This document shows positions 14,790 to 21,242 of a stretch of 42,642 bases of DNA, one piece after another. The notes beneath the pieces were generated by a model. It saw nothing but the letters and a program-made list of their open reading frames with translations, made no database searches and was not told where the DNA came from. The stretch covers positions 1 to 42,642 of the forward strand of contig REEQ01000088.1 in the NCBI GenBank assembly GCA_007695005.1, in the 5' to 3' direction. Source of the stretch: Wenzhouxiangellaceae bacterium (GTDB taxonomy: Bacteria; Pseudomonadota; Gammaproteobacteria; Xanthomonadales; Wenzhouxiangellaceae). Made by a program: the position numbers and the translations under genes. Position 1 is the first letter of the stretch, and the number at the start of each line of letters is the position of its first letter.

Positions 14790-16195
14790 CGACTGCGTTC
14801 CTGCTCCAGCAGGGCCGGACCGGAGCCGAAATCCACCGGGGACTGCGCCGCCAGCCAGGCAAGGACGGCGTAGGCTGCGGCGTTCTGGGCAAGATCGACC
14901 GGGTCGATCTTGTCCAGCGTATCGTTCTCGGTATGGTGGTAGTCGAAATAGGTAGTCCCGTCCTGGCGCAGGTCGACCACGGCCAGGCCGTGCGGCAAGG
15001 ATGGCAGAAAGTCCGGCCCTCCCGAGGCCTGGCGACGCCCCAGATCGATACCCAGAGGCGCGAGTTCGCGCTGTATCGCCTCGATCACCGGCCAGGCTTC
15101 GTCAAGTACTCGGGCACCAATTTCATAGATTTGACCGGCACCGAAATCGGACTCGGCACCCAGCTGCAGATTCTCGAAGTTCTGATGGTGGGCTTCGGCC
15201 CAGGCCCGGCCACCCCACAGCCCGACTTCCTCGGCCGCAAAGAAGATCAGATGAATGGAACGATCCGGCCGCCGGTCAAGGTCCAGAATCAGGCGCCCTG
15301 CCTCGGTGATGATGGCAATGCCAGCGCCGTCATCGAGGGCGCCGGTGCCGACATCCCAGGAATCCAGGTGAGCGCCCAGGGCGACGATCTTTTCCGGTGA
15401 CGTTGCCCCGGTAATCTCGGCAATCACGTTATGGCTGGTGTAGGCCTCGGTTTTCTGCGCATCGATTTCCATGTGCAGGCGAACCGGCTCGCCCAGGGCA
15501 ATCAGGCGTTCGAGCTGGTCTGCATCGGGATTGGAGATGGCCGCGGCCGGCAGCCGGCGCTGACCCAGATCAAAGCGCATGCCACCGGTATGGGCAAAGC
15601 GGTTGGTCGAAGTACCGATCGAGCGAATGATGACACCGACCGCTCCTTTCTCCGCGGCCACGATGGCGCCGCGCGACCGGGCCTGGACAGCCGGTCCGTA
15701 GCCGGAGCCATCGCGGCTGCGCTCCATCCTGTTGCGGATGAAAACGATCCGGCCTGCCACATCTTCTGGCTCTGCGTTGAGCAGTGCATCCAGGTCATCG
15801 AACATGACCACTTCGGCTTCGATGCCGCCTTCCGGGGTGGCTGGCGAGTAACCAATAGCCAAGGCCTCCATGCGCTGCTCGACTGGCGAGGTCACCCGGA
15901 CCCGCTCGAAGTTGCGCGACCAGGTCGGGAAAGTGACTGGCTCCTTCCAGACCCGATCAAAGCCCAGCCCATTGAGCAGTTCCACTGCCCAGGCGACGGC
16001 CCTGGCGTCGGCCTCGGTGCCTGCCAGGCGCGGGCCAACCCGTGTGGTCAGATCCTCGACCACATCGAAACCGCCGTCTCTGACCAGTGCGCGCTCGCGC
16101 AACTCGCGGGCTATGGCCAGATCTTCGTCGGAAAAATAGTCAGCGGACAGCGGGGCAGACAAGCCCAGAACGACAAGCAACAGGATCAATCTCAT
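14780..16195 (-). CDS. M28 family zinc metallopeptidase, exported
   Basis: A 471-residue protein with a signal peptide (residues 1-18, cleavage near SADYF). A protease-associated insert (about 130-250, with GAIVAAEKGAVGVIIRS) is followed by the M28 catalytic domain. Zinc-ligand candidates appear in order: His/Asp in GAHLDSW, Asp in GALDDGAG, the catalytic and metal Glu pair in FFAAEEVGLWGG, Asp/Glu in GAESDFG, and His in DYHHTENDTLDKI. All are conserved, so it should be an active aminopeptidase or carboxypeptidase of periplasmic or secreted location. It starts 36 bases after rppH on the same strand and may be cotranscribed with it. Confidence 0.93.
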   Translation of the reverse strand: MRLILLLVVLGLSAPLSADYFSDEDLAIARELRERALVRDGGFDVVEDLTTRVGPRLAGTEADARAVAWAVELLNGLGFDRVWKEPVTFPTWSRNFERVRVTSPVEQRMEALAIGYSPATPEGGIEAEVVMFDDLDALLNAEPEDVAGRIVFIRNRMERSRDGSGYGPAVQARSRGAIVAAEKGAVGVIIRSIGTSTNRFAHTGGMRFDLGQRRLPAAAISNPDADQLERLIALGEPVRLHMEIDAQKTEAYTSHNVIAEITGATSPEKIVALGAHLDSWDVGTGALDDGAGIAIITEAGRLILDLDRRPDRSIHLIFFAAEEVGLWGGRAWAEAHHQNFENLQLGAESDFGAGQIYEIGARVLDEAWPVIEAIQRELAPLGIDLGRRQASGGPDFLPSLPHGLAVVDLRQDGTTYFDYHHTENDTLDKIDPVDLAQNAAAYAVLAWLAAQSPVDFGSGPALLEQERSRAQ

Positions 16196-16231
16196 AACAA
16201 CTCCGAAACAAGCACCGGTCGGCGCACGGCC

Positions 16232-16726
16232 TCAATCGCCGTTGTCGACCTGCCTGGCAGGCAGATGGGGTTCAAAATGCTTTAGCGCGCGAATATAGAC
16301 CCGGCGCTTGAAGGTGATCACCTTTCTGGCAGGGTACCAGAAATCGACCCAGCGAAATTCGTCAAACTCAGGCTTGGCGGCAGCGTCCAGCCGGAATGCG
16401 GCATCATCACCGAGGAAATGAAGAAGAAACCAGACTTGCTTCTGACCGATGCACATCGGCTTCTGGTGGCGCCTGCGATAACGCCGCGGCAGGCGATAGC
16501 GCAGCCAGCCGGGGGTCGTGGCCAAAACGCGGACATGCTCGCCCGCCAGGCCGGTTTCCTCGGCCAGCTCGCGGTACATCGCTTCCAGCGGCGTTTCATC
16601 ACTGTTCATGCCGCCCTGCGGAAATTGCCAGCCGTCCTGGCCTGCACGGCGCGCCCAGAACACGCGCCCATCATCGCGGGCAAGCACGATCCCCACGTTG
16701 GGGCGGAAACCGTCTGGATCTATCAT
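16232..16726 (-). CDS. rppH: RNA pyrophosphohydrolase RppH
   Basis: A 164-residue Nudix hydrolase very close in pattern to Escherichia coli RppH. It begins [14 protein letters not shown], carries the Nudix box [23 protein letters not shown], and then [28 protein letters not shown] and [12 protein letters not shown]. The enzyme converts 5'-triphosphate mRNA ends to monophosphates and so starts RNase E-dependent decay. The start is placed at 16726 because the family begins with MID; the frame stays open further upstream. Confidence 0.95.
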
Positions 16727-16815
16727 CGCTATTGTTCGGGCGCCGGCTGTGATACCGTGCCGCAAATTCATCAACTGCCCTGAATGTTAATCAATTCAAT
16801 CGTTTCTTGCCAGCC

Positions 16816-17781
16816 ATGGCGAAATTTCTGAGCTCGAACCTGGTCTGGGCCTTGCTGGTCATGGCCGTGCCGCTGAGCCTGCTGCTGGCCGCCAGTGCCG
16901 GCAGTACCGGCTGGCACTGGCCCTGGGCGCTGGATGAAACCATGCAGCGGGTGGTGCTGGAGCTGCGCCTGCCGCGGGCGATTGCCGCCCTGGTCGTCGG
17001 CAGCCTGCTGGCCCTGGCCGGTTGCCTGATGCAGGTGCTGCTGCGCAACCCGCTGGCCGACCCCTACGTGCTGGGGCTGTCCGGTGGCGCGGCCGCCTTT
17101 GCCCTGGCCGGGATGATGTTCGGCCTGAGCTTCATTCCCGTACCCGTACTGGCCTTTTGCGGCGCCCTGCTCAGCCTGCTGGTGGTGTTCGTGCTGGCCC
17201 GCGGGCGCGGCCCCTGGAGTACGACCCGAGTGCTGCTGACCGGGGTGGTGGTGGCCGCCGGCTGGGGCGCGCTGATTTCGCTGATGCTGGCCACCGGCCC
17301 GGATGCCAGCCTGCGCAGCATGCTGTTCTGGCTGATGGGCGATTTGAGCCATGCCCGCCTGTCGGCCTGGTGGCTGTTGCCGCTTGGCGCTGGTCTCGCC
17401 CTGCTGTGGCTGCGCGCGCGCAGTCTGAACGTGATGAGCGCCGGTGCACTGCAAGCCGCCCTGCTCGGCGAATCCAGCCAGGCGCGGTTCTGGGAAATCT
17501 ACCTGGTTGCCTCGCTGCTGACCGGACTGGCCGTGTCGATGGCCGGCGCCATCGGCTTTGTCGGCCTGATCATTCCGCACCTGATGCGCCTGATCGTCGG
17601 CAGCGATCATCGTCGCCTGCTGCCGGCCGCGGCGCTGTTCGGCGGCAGTTTCCTGGTCCTGGCCGATACCCTGGCCCGCACCGTGCTGGCGCCACGTCAG
17701 CTCCCGGTGGGGGTACTGACCGCCCTGATCGGCGTGCCGCTGTTTCTGCTGCTGCTCAACCGTGCGGTGAGGATTCGCTAG
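16816..17781 (+). CDS. btuC: FecCD-type ABC permease, probable cobalamin permease BtuC
   Basis: A 321-residue polytopic membrane protein of the FecCD family with about nine or ten helices. The signatures LALAGCLMQVLLRNPLADPYVLGLSGGA, GAIGFVGLIIPHLMR and RQLPVGVLTALIGVPLF are present. The family imports B12, haem or ferric siderophores. B12 is inferred from the nearby riboswitch-controlled btuB. ATG 16816 is chosen over the in-frame TTG at 16807. The TAG stop (17779-17781) is part of the CTAG flanking the palindromic element that separates this gene from its ATPase partner. No gene for a binding protein (BtuF) lies nearby. Confidence 0.85.
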   Translation: MAKFLSSNLVWALLVMAVPLSLLLAASAGSTGWHWPWALDETMQRVVLELRLPRAIAALVVGSLLALAGCLMQVLLRNPLADPYVLGLSGGAAAFALAGMMFGLSFIPVPVLAFCGALLSLLVVFVLARGRGPWSTTRVLLTGVVVAAGWGALISLMLATGPDASLRSMLFWLMGDLSHARLSAWWLLPLGAGLALLWLRARSLNVMSAGALQAALLGESSQARFWEIYLVASLLTGLAVSMAGAIGFVGLIIPHLMRLIVGSDHRRLLPAAALFGGSFLVLADTLARTVLAPRQLPVGVLTALIGVPLFLLLLNRAVRIR

Positions 17782-17811
17782 TGTACCCCGCCAAACACTC
17801 TGTGACTTATA

Positions 17812-17907
17812 GAGCGCGCCTGAGCCGACAGTGCAAGGCGCGACCCGCAGTGAATGGCAAGCCCTTTACAAGGGGCGCAACGCCGCAATGTCGGTTCAGG
17901 CGCGCTC
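17812..17907. repeat. Internal hairpin 1 of the palindromic element
   Basis: A 19-bp arm (17812-17830, starting GAGCGCGCCTGAG) pairs with 17889-17907 with one G/T-type mismatch. The 58-base loop contains TGCAAGGC, GAATGGCA and AACGCCGCA. These blocks reappear, in inverted orientation, in the loop of hairpin 2. Confidence 0.8.
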
Positions 17908-17914
17908 CCGAAGG

Positions 17915-18013
17915 GCGAGTCGGAGAGCGTTCACCTGCGGCGTTCTATCTCTTGGCAAGGACGCTGCCATTCCCAGCGAGACAGGCCTTGCAGCTAAACG
18001 CTCTCCGACTCGC
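17915..18013. repeat. Internal hairpin 2 of the palindromic element
   Basis: A perfect 17-bp arm (GCGAGTCGGAGAGCGTT, 17915-17931) pairs with 17997-18013. The loop, read on the minus strand, has TGCAAGGC, GAATGGCA and AACGCCGCA in the same order as the loop of hairpin 1. The stems of the two hairpins are unrelated in sequence. Confidence 0.8.
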
Positions 18014-18046
18014 TAGAAGTTACAGAGTGTTTGGCGGGGTACACTA

Positions 18047-18823
18047 GTGGCGCTGCTCAGTACCAAGGGTTTATCCGTCCAGATCGGCGATGTCGTCGTC
18101 GTCGAGAACTTGAGCATCGAGGTGGGCCCGGGCCAGTTCTGGGGCCTGCTCGGGCCGAACGGGGTCGGCAAGACCACCTTGCTGAAAACACTGGCCGGAG
18201 TGCATCCCGCCCGCGCCGGCCAGGTACTGCTGGACGGCAAGCCGCTGGGCGCGCTGAAACGGCGCACGATTGCCCGGCGCCTGGGCATGTTGCCGCAGCA
18301 CACCCAGTATGTCTTTGAAGCCTCTTGCGAACAGACCGCGCTGGTCGGTCGCCACCCGCACCTGCGCGCCTGGGACCGGGAAAGCGCGGCCGACCGGGCC
18401 ATGGCCCGGCAGGCACTGGCATCGCTGGGGCTTGAAGAACTGGCCGAGCGCAGCTGCATGAACCTGTCCGGCGGTGAATCCAGGCGCCTGGCCCTGGCCA
18501 CGGTACTGGTCCAGGATCCGGCGGTGATGCTGCTGGACGAACCCACCAATCACCTCGACCCGGCCAACCAGGTCACCATCCTGGACGTGCTCGGACGCCA
18601 GGTCAGAGGGCACGACAAGGCCGCGGTGATGGCGCTGCACGAGGTCAACCTGGCCACCTGCTATTGCACCCATGTTTTGCTGCTGTACGGCAATGGGGAG
18701 TACGAGGCCGGGCCGACGGAGCAGCTACTGGACGAGCAGCGGCTCAGTCGCCTGTATCAGTGCAAGATGCGACTGGTCGACGACGGCAGCCAGCGGGTGT
18801 TTGCCGTCGCCGGTCAGTCCTGA
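18047..18823 (+). CDS. btuD: ABC transporter ATPase, probable BtuD
   Basis: A 258-residue ABC ATPase with Walker A GPNGVGKTT (about residues 36-44), a Q-loop, the signature LSGGES, Walker B VMLLDEPTNHLD and the switch His in ALHEVN. It would power the FecCD permease encoded by btuC. The start is GTG at 18047, whose G is the last base of the right CTAG. Its likely ancestral ribosome site (GTGAGGA near 17768-17774) is now 262 bp further away, on the other side of the inserted element. GGCGGGG (18033-18039) within the right terminal repeat is the only nearby purine-rich replacement. The gene ends overlapping the convergent methyltransferase by 10 bases. Confidence 0.88.
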   Translation: MALLSTKGLSVQIGDVVVVENLSIEVGPGQFWGLLGPNGVGKTTLLKTLAGVHPARAGQVLLDGKPLGALKRRTIARRLGMLPQHTQYVFEASCEQTALVGRHPHLRAWDRESAADRAMARQALASLGLEELAERSCMNLSGGESRRLALATVLVQDPAVMLLDEPTNHLDPANQVTILDVLGRQVRGHDKAAVMALHEVNLATCYCTHVLLLYGNGEYEAGPTEQLLDEQRLSRLYQCKMRLVDDGSQRVFAVAGQS

Positions 18824-19884
18824 CGCCGGCACACCAGCAAGCTGTGGCCCTGGCCGATCTGCTCATGCTCGCTTTCCAGCTTGAGCCCGGCCTGGTCCAG
18901 CAGGGGCAAAAGCTGGTCGCGGCGATAGAAGCGGCTGTTGCCGGTGGCCATGGCCGTGAAGTACAGGGAAATGGCATTGAGACTATAGCGGGCGGCATCG
19001 TGAATCTGCACATCGGGAAACAGCTCGATGATGTACAGGCGCGTTTCCGGGCCCATTGCCGACACGGCCCGTTTCAGTATCGAGACAATCTCGGGCTCTG
19101 AAAAGCAGGCCAGCAGCTGGCTCATGACCATGGCATCGGCACCGGCCGGCAGTTCCAGAGCGGGATCCAGCAATTGGGCCGGGTGGAGCCTGATTCGGTC
19201 AGCAAGGCCCTCGTCGCTCAAGCGCTGCTGGGCCAGCGCGAGCACGTCCGGCAGGTCAACCAGGGTTACCTGCACCTCGCGATCATGGCGCAAGACGCGA
19301 GAGGCCAGGTTACCGGTATTGGCGCCGACGTCGACCACGTGGGTCGGATGGCGCTCGAAGATGCGCGGCACCAGGGCTTCAAATGCGCGTTCGGAGAAAA
19401 ACTGGTCAAAACGAAACCAGCTGCTGGCCGCCGGGTCCTTCAGCTCGGACAGGCCCTCGTACAGCGTCGCCCAGGGACCGAAGTGCGCCAGGCCGGCAGG
19501 CCGTTCTTCGGCCAGGGCTTCCGGCAGACGGGCCATGCCGTGATAAGCAAAATCGCGGGTGAAATCCATGTTGACCCGGGTCAGCTCGTCGTTGAGCAGC
19601 ACGCTGCCCAGGGCAGCCAGGGCCAGGCGCTCGCCGTTGCGCTCGATCAGCCCGATATCCAGGGCGAAGTCGGTCAGCACCGATACCGCGTAAGTACTCA
19701 GGCCACTGGCCTCACCCAGGGCTTGCTCGCTCAAGCCCTCGGCACCGGCTCGCTCCAGCGCATCCAGCAGGCCCTGGTCGCGCATGGCAATGGCGGCCCA
19801 GAAGGCGAACGGGGCAAACGCCAGGCTCTGGGCAGCCGACCGGGCCTGGCCGGTAGGCAGACGGGTTCTTTTTTTTCTAATCAT
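18814..19884 (-). CDS. SAM-dependent methyltransferase, O-methyltransferase type
   Basis: A 356-residue protein. The N-terminal half (about 15-110) is a winged-helix dimerisation-like domain, and the C-terminal half is a class I methyltransferase fold. It has VVDVGANTGNLASRVL (SAM-binding motif I), TLVDLPDVLALAQ, DAMVMSQLLACFSE and FYRRDQLLPLLDQAG. The layout resembles the acetylserotonin/hydroxyneurosporene O-methyltransferase group; the substrate is unknown. ATG 19884 lies in the first unit of a 13-bp tandem repeat and is followed by a run of eight A. The region upstream is AT-richer than its surroundings. A TATACT (20002-20007, minus strand) may be its -10. Confidence 0.85.
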   Translation of the reverse strand: MIRKKRTRLPTGQARSAAQSLAFAPFAFWAAIAMRDQGLLDALERAGAEGLSEQALGEASGLSTYAVSVLTDFALDIGLIERNGERLALAALGSVLLNDELTRVNMDFTRDFAYHGMARLPEALAEERPAGLAHFGPWATLYEGLSELKDPAASSWFRFDQFFSERAFEALVPRIFERHPTHVVDVGANTGNLASRVLRHDREVQVTLVDLPDVLALAQQRLSDEGLADRIRLHPAQLLDPALELPAGADAMVMSQLLACFSEPEIVSILKRAVSAMGPETRLYIIELFPDVQIHDAARYSLNAISLYFTAMATGNSRFYRRDQLLPLLDQAGLKLESEHEQIGQGHSLLVCRRQD

Positions 19885-19959
19885 TGACGGTAGTGATTGG
19901 CGATAAGTGATTGACGATAGTGATTGACGATAGTGATTGACGATAGTGATTGGCAATAG
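19881..19959. repeat. Tandem repeat, six copies of a 13-bp unit (TGATTGACGATAG)
   Basis: Units lie at 19881-19893, 19894-19907 (14 bases), 19908-19920, 19921-19933, 19934-19946 and 19947-19959. The three central units are identical and the outer ones have one to three changes. On the minus strand the array forms the immediate 5' leader and start codon of the methyltransferase gene. Confidence 0.92.
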
Positions 19960-20055
19960 CGGTGCTGTTTGGGCATGGGTACTTTGTTTTTTTGCGGTCG
20001 CAGTATAAGAAATCCTGGGCTTGCTGCTGTACGGATCGGGTTACCGACATTACTG

Positions 20056-20074
20056 AATGCGAATGATTTGCATT
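20056..20074. promoter_or_regulatory. Fur-box-like palindrome
   Basis: AATGCGAATGATTTGCATT is a 19-bp dyad with one mismatch. It matches the AATGnnAATnATTnnCATT form of many Fur sites in Pseudomonas-like bacteria. It lies 107 bases before the plus-strand gene at 20182 and 171 bases before the divergent methyltransferase. A weak plus-strand promoter (TTGCAT 20068-20073, 17 bases, TAGCCT 20091-20096) overlaps it. A further 7-bp hairpin GTCTCCA/TGGAGAC lies at 20098-20115. Confidence 0.5.
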
Positions 20075-20181
20075 TAGGATGATTGCTTGGTAGCCTTGTC
20101 TCCAGGCATGGAGACCGGCAGAGATCAACCTGCCTGATCAAACATCACAATCGAGCCCCTCGGCGACCAGGAATCATCGGC

Positions 20182-20805
20182 ATGAAGTTCTTCACCCACA
20201 GCTACGCACCGACCATCTCGGACCTGCCTGCCGGGCCCCGGGCCCGTCTGGCGCTGACAGAACTGGCAACGCACGACACGGTTGCCAGCCGCAAGCGAGC
20301 GCCCAACAAAAGCATTGCCCTGACCGACCCACAGTGCTGGCTGTTCTGGCTGCTGCGCTCCCGGCAGCCGTGCCTGGCCCTGGCGACGGGCGAGCTCCAG
20401 GCCGACTGGCTGATCCTCGCTGGCGCTGCAGTCACCGCCAGCGCCGGCAGCCGCCTCTTGTTCGAGCCGGAATCGACAGCGGCCGGGGCGCTGGATTGTG
20501 CTGTCATTCGCGCCGGCCTTGATTGGGGCGTTCGGCGCATGACCCACGGCGAGAGCATCCGCGATGGCAGCTTGCAGGCCCTGATTCTGGCCTCGGGGGC
20601 TGCCGGCTTTGTCGACCAGCTGCTTGCTCGCCTGCCCAAGCTGGCCAATGGCGCCATCGTGGTCGGGCTGCTACCGAAAAACGACCGTGATCGTGCCCAG
20701 GATGTGCTTGCCCGTCTGAGTGGCATGGCACCCGGCTTCGATGCCATGGCCGTGGACTGCCAGCACCAGGCCTTGATCATTGCTGAATACAAGGGGGCCA
20801 ACTGA
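20182..20805 (+). CDS. Uncharacterised protein, first gene of the ATP-grasp run
   Basis: A 207-residue protein that I do not recognise. It has no signal peptide or membrane helix. The C-terminal half alternates hydrophobic strands and helices (LQALILASGAAGF, GAIVVGLLPKNDRDRAQ, HQALIIAEY), which suggests an alpha/beta fold. The N-terminal third is basic, with RKRAPNKS. ATG 20182 is chosen because AGGA (20169-20172) lies 9 bases upstream and the more upstream frame looks non-coding. It shares one base with the next gene (TGATG), so the two are probably translationally coupled. A Fur-like site precedes it. Confidence 0.72.
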   Translation: MKFFTHSYAPTISDLPAGPRARLALTELATHDTVASRKRAPNKSIALTDPQCWLFWLLRSRQPCLALATGELQADWLILAGAAVTASAGSRLLFEPESTAAGALDCAVIRAGLDWGVRRMTHGESIRDGSLQALILASGAAGFVDQLLARLPKLANGAIVVGLLPKNDRDRAQDVLARLSGMAPGFDAMAVDCQHQALIIAEYKGAN

Positions 20806-21242
20806 TGTGCCAGGCAACGCCTACCGGCCTGCTGGCGCTCGAGGCGCTGCGTCATCTGGCCCATGGCAGCTGCGACCCGAGCATCGAGCGCTGGTTGATC
20901 GAAACGGAGCTGCTGGAGCCGCTGACCGCGTTGGTCGATGTGGTCAGGGCAAGCGACCTAGTGGTCCTTCAACTTGATCAGCACAGCTTCGCGCCGCCTG
21001 GCAGCGGTGCAGCAAGGCCATTGGAAGAAGCCTTGCTGAGCGCCATGCGAGCAGCAACGACCCATCCCGAAGACATCCACGCCCGTCTGCAAGCCTGGCT
21101 GCCCGCAATGGCCTGCCAGGCTGCTGAAGACGCCCTGGTTGCGACCAGCGAATGCCTGATCTGCGCCAGCTGTCGCCAGCAGCGTTGGGCCGGAGTACAG
21201 GTTGGGGAGAAGGACAGAAGGCGGCGTAAACGCGACAATTGA
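20805..21242 (+). CDS. Uncharacterised protein with C-terminal CxxCxxC
   Basis: A 145-residue, mostly helical protein that I do not recognise. Near the C-terminus is ECLICASCRQQRW, a CxxCxxC cluster that could bind metal or an Fe-S cluster, followed by a highly basic tail. A further Cys is at position 2. It overlaps the preceding gene by one base and ends 25 bases before the ATP-grasp gene, so it probably belongs to the same transcript. Metal binding and any link to the ATP-grasp protein are inference. Confidence 0.7.
   Translation: MCQATPTGLLALEALRHLAHGSCDPSIERWLIETELLEPLTALVDVVRASDLVVLQLDQHSFAPPGSGAARPLEEALLSAMRAATTHPEDIHARLQAWLPAMACQAAEDALVATSECLICASCRQQRWAGVQVGEKDRRRRKRDN

What the first reader, a model, noticed from the sequence alone, without database searches (positions are those of the whole stretch)
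17778..18050. A palindromic element inserted exactly at the btuC-btuD stop/start junction while keeping both reading frames intact
Seen: perfect 22-bp terminal repeats, CTAG on both sides, btuC stop TAG within the left CTAG, and btuD GTG beginning on the last base of the right CTAG. Deleting the element plus one CTAG gives CTAGTG, a one-base stop/start overlap like that between dsbA and the EEP gene (37796). The target duplication itself therefore preserved both genes. Consequence (inference): the ancestral ribosome site inside btuC is now 262 bp from btuD, coupling is lost, and translation of btuD may rely on GGCGGGG in the right terminal repeat. The palindrome could also attenuate or stabilise the transcript.
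Basis: partly seen in the sequence, partly recalled or inferred. Interest (0 to 1): 0.82.

Follow-up and report, generated by a model that had tools for sequence, protein, structure and literature searches.

The report
Foldback mobile element between two genes
A short folded piece of mobile DNA landed exactly on the stop codon between two vitamin B12 transport genes and left both readable, probably because its preferred target word CTAG is rare and, where an insertion does no harm, is often a stop codon.

Summary
Window 17778-18047 is one copy of a dispersed, near-palindromic, non-coding repeat of about 264 bp with 22-bp perfect terminal repeats. The genome belongs to the Wenzhouxiangella genus group, where 20 of 30 genomes carry the repeat's ends. 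W. sediminis has a separate insertion at the same btuC stop codon.

In 49 two-ended copies the terminal G and C never vary while the outer bases do. So the element is probably G...C with a duplicated TA inside CTAG, as for IS630, rather than a duplicated CTAG. No partner transposase was found.

The stop-codon placement is expected. CTAG is about 15-fold depleted, and 33 of 116 CTAGs outside gene interiors are TAG stops (28%). 13 of 49 copies sit on stops (27%).

The right repeat carries a Shine-Dalgarno-like GGCGGGGU as strong as the displaced site (-6.8 versus -6.5 kcal/mol). The fold covaries strongly, but G.U is no commoner than A.C (46 versus 48), so RNA-level selection is not shown. It is a new MITE family of a known kind; regulatory effects are untested.

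The parts
16807..17781 (+). btuC-like permease gene (FecCD family); its stop TAG is 17779-17781
   Evidence: PF01032 E 9.3e-82; ORF
17779..17780 (.). left copy of the duplicated target TA (inside CTAG 17778-17781)
   Evidence: flank tally of 49 copies; empty site in G012; length of the duplication is inferred
17781..18044 (.). MITE, 264 bp, from terminal G to terminal C; near-palindromic, non-coding
   Evidence: family matches
17782..17803 (+). left 22-bp perfect terminal inverted repeat
   Evidence: 0 mismatches
17812..17907 (.). first internal hairpin; arms 17812-17834 and 17885-17907
   Evidence: 91% complementary; covarying helix
17915..18013 (.). second internal hairpin; arms 17915-17938 and 17990-18013
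   Evidence: 92% complementary; covarying helix
18022..18043 (-). right 22-bp perfect terminal inverted repeat
   Evidence: 0 mismatches
18033..18040 (+). GGCGGGGT, Shine-Dalgarno-like stretch in the right repeat, 6 nt before the btuD GTG
   Evidence: read; pairing energy -6.8 kcal/mol
18045..18046 (.). right copy of the duplicated target TA (inside CTAG 18044-18047)
   Evidence: as for the left copy
18047..18823 (+). btuD-like ATPase gene, start GTG
   Evidence: PF00005 E 2.2e-32; the start position is matched in G012 and G009

Best explanation
It is a non-autonomous, palindromic DNA transposon (a MITE). Shown: it belongs to a dispersed family, the site is empty in close relatives, and both reading frames are intact. 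Strongly suggested: it inserts at TA within CTAG, duplicates TA and, because it begins with G and ends with C, rebuilds CTAG at both ends. At btuC-btuD this rebuilt the btuC stop TAG on the left and left the btuD GTG intact on the right. The placement is what target choice plus loss of harmful insertions predict: CTAG is rare, and more than a quarter of the CTAGs outside gene interiors are TAG stop codons. Inferred: btuD is now initiated from GGCGGGGU in the right repeat, replacing the displaced site inside btuC. Inferred and untested: in the mRNA that site pairs with the left repeat just behind the btuC stop, so a ribosome finishing btuC could open the outer stem and expose it.
For: Repeat family: 29 matching stretches in the own genome; end pattern in 20 of 30 genus genomes with no hit for the reversed control. 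Empty junctions in 24 of 25 relatives, including CGA TAG TGG in G012. Terminal G 49 of 49 and C 49 of 49, outer C 40 of 49 and outer G 44 of 49. Stop-codon share: 13 of 49 copies against 33 of 116 CTAGs outside gene interiors. Of 44 gene 3' ends that face a copy, none runs on into the element. The right repeat pairs with an anti-Shine-Dalgarno at -6.8 kcal/mol, more strongly than 73% of 642 predicted starts.
Against: No transposase with matching ends was found, so the mobiliser is unknown and movement was not observed. Many older copies have unlike flanks (22 of 49 are not CTAG on both sides), so the duplication is read statistically, not site by site. Most copies in the own genome are cut by contig ends. 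The predicted RNA buries the new Shine-Dalgarno in a long stem, which could as well silence btuD.
Confidence: 0.85

Rival explanations
1. Same kind of element, but with a 4-bp CTAG duplication, moved by an IS5-like transposase, as reported for MITEPsy1 of Pseudomonas syringae (CTAG or YTAA, 4 nt).
For: 27 of 49 copies have CTAG on both sides, which fits either length because CTAG is its own complement; a CTAG-duplicating MITE is on record (PMC3189936, passages).
Against: Deviations fall on the outer base (14 of 98) and never on the inner one (0 of 98); with a 4-bp duplication both should decay alike.
Confidence: 0.12
2. The element is ancestral at btuC-btuD and conserved as a regulatory spacer; the relatives without it have lost it.
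For: Two genomes, G000 and G003, have it on the same stop codon in the same orientation.
Against: 1 of 25 relatives has it, and the nearest ones (G009, G012, G015, G019) are all empty. The two copies are 90.7% identical to each other, while the G003 copy is 94.8% identical over 268 bp to another copy in G003, and the G000 copy 95.9% over 218 bp to a copy in G016.
Confidence: 0.05
3. The structure has been taken over as an RNA device: the btuC stop and btuD start are brought together by the stem, and termination on btuC opens it so that btuD stays coupled across 265 nt.
For: The predicted mRNA pairs the region just behind the btuC stop with GGCGGGGU and GTG. Six tandem copies have a stop within 8 nt on the left and a start within 16 nt on the right, two of them at btuC-btuD.
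Against: No excess of G.U over A.C among mismatches (46 versus 48). The placement is explained without it. An abstract seen in a listing says coupling by termination-reinitiation requires overlaps or very short distances (PMC10666635). No expression data.
Confidence: 0.15

Closest known systems
Chunjie MITE of Geobacter uraniireducens
   Same: A MITE of similar size (178-235 bp) reported in an operon; the cited title says it was inserted 'without disturbing the operon structure' (passages and reference list of PMC10969869; the original paper is not held)
   Different: Sequence and target could not be compared here; that review says the full-length copy disrupts one of two phosphate uptake operons
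RUP of Streptococcus pneumoniae with IS630-Spn1
   Same: Small element with terminal repeats at TA targets, thought to be moved by an IS630-family transposase (passages of PMC2229807)
   Different: 107 bp, 9-bp repeats, and a partner IS is known; no partner was found here
IS630 of Shigella
   Same: Prefers TA in CTAG (title in the reference list of PMC2170065; that paper itself is not held)
   Different: An autonomous insertion sequence; this element has no transposase gene
MITEPsy1 of Pseudomonas syringae
   Same: A MITE that inserts at CTAG (PMC3189936, passages)
   Different: 100 bp, other terminal repeats, 4-nt duplication, thought to derive from ISPsy2
Correia/NEMIS and ERIC repeats
   Same: Palindromic, dispersed, with TA at the ends, often beside genes, affecting transcripts (passages of PMC2229807 and PMC10969869)
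   Different: Other hosts, sizes and repeats (as given in those passages); no transcript data here

Membership tests
MITE (non-autonomous DNA transposon) | short element with terminal inverted repeats and no transposase gene | tested here: met
   264 bp, 22-bp perfect repeats
MITE (non-autonomous DNA transposon) | dispersed copies at unrelated sites, with empty sites in relatives | tested here: met
MITE (non-autonomous DNA transposon) | flanking target duplication | tested here: met
   TA (or CTAG) on both sides; the empty site has one copy
MITE (non-autonomous DNA transposon) | an autonomous relative with the same ends | tested here: not met
   none found near the ends examined; the search was not exhaustive, and many known MITEs also lack one (recalled)
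MITE (non-autonomous DNA transposon) | observed transposition | not testable with these tools
   needs an entrapment experiment
Element moved by an IS630/Tc1-mariner transposase | 2-bp TA duplication | tested here: inconclusive
   supported by 49 flanks, but CTAG cannot be excluded
Element moved by an IS630/Tc1-mariner transposase | matching IS630-family transposase or ends in the host | tested here: not met
   PF13358 in 3 of 30 genus genomes, 2 over the cut-off; the four copies in G023 end in TTATTAACCCGGCA-like repeats; for G024 no clear ends were found
IS5-type element with 4-bp CTAG/YTAR duplication | all four bases duplicated alike | tested here: inconclusive
   inner bases invariant, outer bases variable, which speaks against it
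Known structured RNA (Rfam) | match to an Rfam model | tested here: not met
   no match up to E 1 in window 15000-21000

The most novel reading that the evidence does not exclude
The three-stem fold is a working part of the mobile DNA itself. Sub-families with different stem sequences keep the same fold through paired changes (56 of 95 pairs), while G.U is no commoner than A.C, which points to a folded DNA form (hairpin or cruciform) used in movement, or kept up by arm-to-arm correction, rather than to RNA. Sister families with other ends share the two-hairpin layout, so this would be a superfamily of CTAG-seeking foldback elements in which each insertion also makes a new CTAG target.
Probability: 0.25. 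Interest if true: 0.65.

Novelty: new member of a known kind. Interest (0 to 1): 0.42.

Why it matters
It turns a striking coincidence (an insertion exactly on a stop/start junction) into a countable prediction: a transposon that seeks a depleted word ends up on stop codons about as often as that word is a stop codon. It also gives a natural series of operon-junction insertions (btuC-btuD in two genomes, rpoZ-spoT in two, DUF484-xerC in two sister genomes) in which the terminal repeats appear to supply stop, Shine-Dalgarno or start signals. That series could be used to test how translation copes with a long foldback between neighbouring genes.

Tried and rejected
Rfam RNA: no match. Promoter or terminator in the element: 0 promoter-like sites; the single terminator-like site, at 17730, lies in btuC. 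IS630 partner: PF13358 in 3 of 30 genus genomes and, where ends were found, with other ends. Autonomous partner: solitary ends in G023 and 20 stretches of G103, G076 and G155 showed no pair of ends around a transposase-sized gap. In the 61 named loci, seven held a loose pair 700-3500 bp apart with one end at 2-3 mismatches; 10 proteins in or across six of these gaps are ordinary or unmatched in Pfam, none a transposase (the gap in L184 was not scanned). Plasmid and phage collections: no match.

Orientation bias in operons: one search gave 21 versus 8, but nine G023 copies were wrongly oriented there. Corrected it is 19 versus 10, and for several other copies the orientation rests on weak scores; I claim no bias. 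RNA-level selection: G.U 46, A.C 48, other mismatches 64; not supported. In one search one of five measures goes against the fold: further pair types, 102 observed against 105.2 shuffled (441 of 500 shuffles as high). 'No copy inside a gene' is weak, because an interrupted gene would be called as two; the stronger fact is that none of 44 facing 3' ends runs into the element. Three copies have a called start inside the element: xerC in two sister genomes, and L048. The CTAG count used a small gene finder of my own, which can misplace genes; one search counted 37 gene stops on CTAG where one search counted 33 sites (convergent genes sharing one CTAG, and btuC itself, explain part; I did not reconcile them fully).

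In print: Wenzhouxiangella with 'miniature inverted-repeat', 0 papers; with 'transpos', 7 papers, none about such repeats by title (listing only). The listings showed no paper with a Wenzhouxiangella count above 0, and those no description of this family by title. The library holds open-licence papers only.

Rows dropped: alignment A1 used 27 of the 32 references prepared (left out: L143, L144, L146, L147, L201); L129 and L160 (which holds a masked run of N) were excluded by the script. The 49-copy catalogue covers loci L001-L216 only; of 121 candidate end pairs, 72 with arm identity under 20 of 30 were discarded.

Full report
What is there. CTAG lies at 17778-17781 and 18044-18047, the 22-bp perfect inverted repeats at 17782-17803 and 18022-18043, the btuC stop in the left CTAG, and the btuD GTG on the last base of the right one. 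As single-stranded DNA the element folds into one long terminal stem carrying two hairpins, at -103.4 kcal/mol against -47.7 for shuffles.

It is a repeat family. There are 29 matching stretches in its own genome (one copy can give several) and 18 ends by pattern, many at contig ends, which suggests that assembly broke there. Of 30 genomes in the genus, own included, 24 match by sequence (some only through a core shared with sister families) and 20 carry the end pattern, with no hit for the reversed control. In a sample of 200 genomes of the order, 21 have the pattern; these 21 are among the 35 of the same family, and none of the 165 others has it. A scan of named genomes returned 61 stretches: 34 titled Wenzhouxiangella or Wenzhouxiangellaceae, 22 unnamed Gammaproteobacteria MAGs, two Thioalkalivibrio denitrificans, one Halioglobus MAG, one Marinimicrobium and one MAG labelled as an archaeon.

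Empty sites. I read the btuC end in 25 relatives. G009 reads TGATGG; G015 and G019 have 1 and 0 nt before the next ATG. Only G003 carries the element. It sits on the same stop codon there, yet its closest full-length match is another copy in G003 (94.8% over 268 bp), and the window copy's best long match is in G016 (95.9% over 218 bp); the two btuC-btuD copies are 90.7% identical to each other. Two independent insertions at one homologous target are the simpler reading.

Where it cuts. Among 49 two-ended copies (30-nt arms agreeing at 20 or more positions), the base next to TGTACCCC/GGGGTACA is G on the left in 49 of 49 and C on the right in 49 of 49. The outermost bases are C in 40 of 49 and G in 44 of 49, and the T and A differ in 3 to 8 copies each. 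If CTAG were the duplicated target, inner and outer bases should decay alike. I therefore place the ends at G...C and the duplication at TA, with CTAG as the preferred target. IS630 is described that way (title of Tenzen and Ohtsubo 1991, seen only in the references of PMC2170065). A 4-bp CTAG duplication, as in MITEPsy1 (PMC3189936, passages), remains possible. Because the element starts with G and ends with C, insertion into CTAG rebuilds CTAG on both sides; the btuC stop TAG is then TA from the target plus G from the element.

Why exactly on the stop codon. In 842,642 bp (40 stretches of five genomes, plus the window) CTAG occurs 182 times against 2,777 expected from base composition: 66 inside genes, 83 intergenic and 33 on TAG stop codons. 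So 33 of 116 sites outside gene interiors (28%) are stops. Of the 49 copies, 13 (27%) have a neighbouring gene's stop codon as the edge TAG. Target choice and survival explain the placement without anything more.

Other junctions. Of 27 rpoZ loci read, two carry the element before spoT: the window's own genome, and G026 at another position, directly before the spoT ATG. Of 28 DUF484 loci read (L272 did not align), two carry it: the sister genomes G011 and G014, where, judged against the empty sites in G013 and G018, it lies in codon 3 of xerC and its right arm offers an ATG in frame with xerC. Six tandem copies have a stop within 8 nt on the left and a start within 16 nt on the right. The gene names spoT, rpoZ, xerC and DUF484 rest on recognising the protein sequences (recalled), not on a family search.

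Translation of btuD. The right repeat pairs with a canonical anti-Shine-Dalgarno (recalled, not taken from this genome) at -6.8 kcal/mol, more strongly than 73% of 642 predicted starts and than 93% of 600 random 20-mers, against -6.5 for the empty junction. In the predicted mRNA this site and the GTG are buried in the terminal stem opposite the sequence behind the btuC stop. A terminating ribosome would cover that left arm and could free the site; this is inference. It is equally possible that btuD output simply falls.

The fold. On 27 copies that fall by eye into three sub-families, 95.5% of cells pair and 56 of 95 pairs show changes on both sides. The covariation score is 0.459 against 0.165 for shuffles and at most 0.103 when slid; one of five measures, further pair types, does not exceed the shuffles (102 against 105.2). 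Mismatches are symmetric: 46 G.T, 48 A.C, 64 other. RNA selection should favour G.U over A.C on the transcribed strand, so the fold looks like a property of the DNA element (needed for movement, or kept by arm-to-arm correction). Copies lie in both orientations relative to genes, which weakens this test.

Verdict. A real, well-placed insertion of a MITE family of which I found no description. Its closest precedent is Chunjie in a Geobacter operon. The insertion is established, the exact placement is ordinary once the target is known, and any regulatory effect is open.

Noticed in passing
L138 1833-1993, L343 2351-2511, L332 1673-1850, L339 695-896, L335 end at 2881: A second small element, about 160-200 bp, with ends CCCGCATTATTCATGA, also flanked by CTAG-like sites and several times sharing a CTAG with an end of the first family, as if each insertion offers a new target.
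   Followed up: partly
L050 1501-1675, L053 1501-1672, L057 1501-1552, L056 416-463; G023 (20 ends): Sister families with other ends (TAGTGGTCCTTCAACCTGAT..., TAGTGG.CCATGCGG...) fold into the same kind of long stem with two hairpins.
   Followed up: partly
L049 1504-1744 and L198 918-1314: xerC of two sister genomes seems to start inside the element: the right arm gives an in-frame ATG (MLQNER...), and the right flank has become CTG in one and CTC in the other, both leucine codons.
   Followed up: partly
L132, L133, L135, L137: Four solitary ends in the complete genome G023 match only about the first 13-18 bases of the repeat, with no second end found nearby.
   Followed up: no
L187: A contig labelled as a Methanomassiliicoccaceae MAG carries the end of this element (94% identical over 104 bp to the window copy); probably a binning error.
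   Followed up: no
L041, L061, L048: Longer copies (about 330 bp) carry an extra stretch of about 70 bp, itself palindromic, in the loop of the first hairpin.
   Followed up: no
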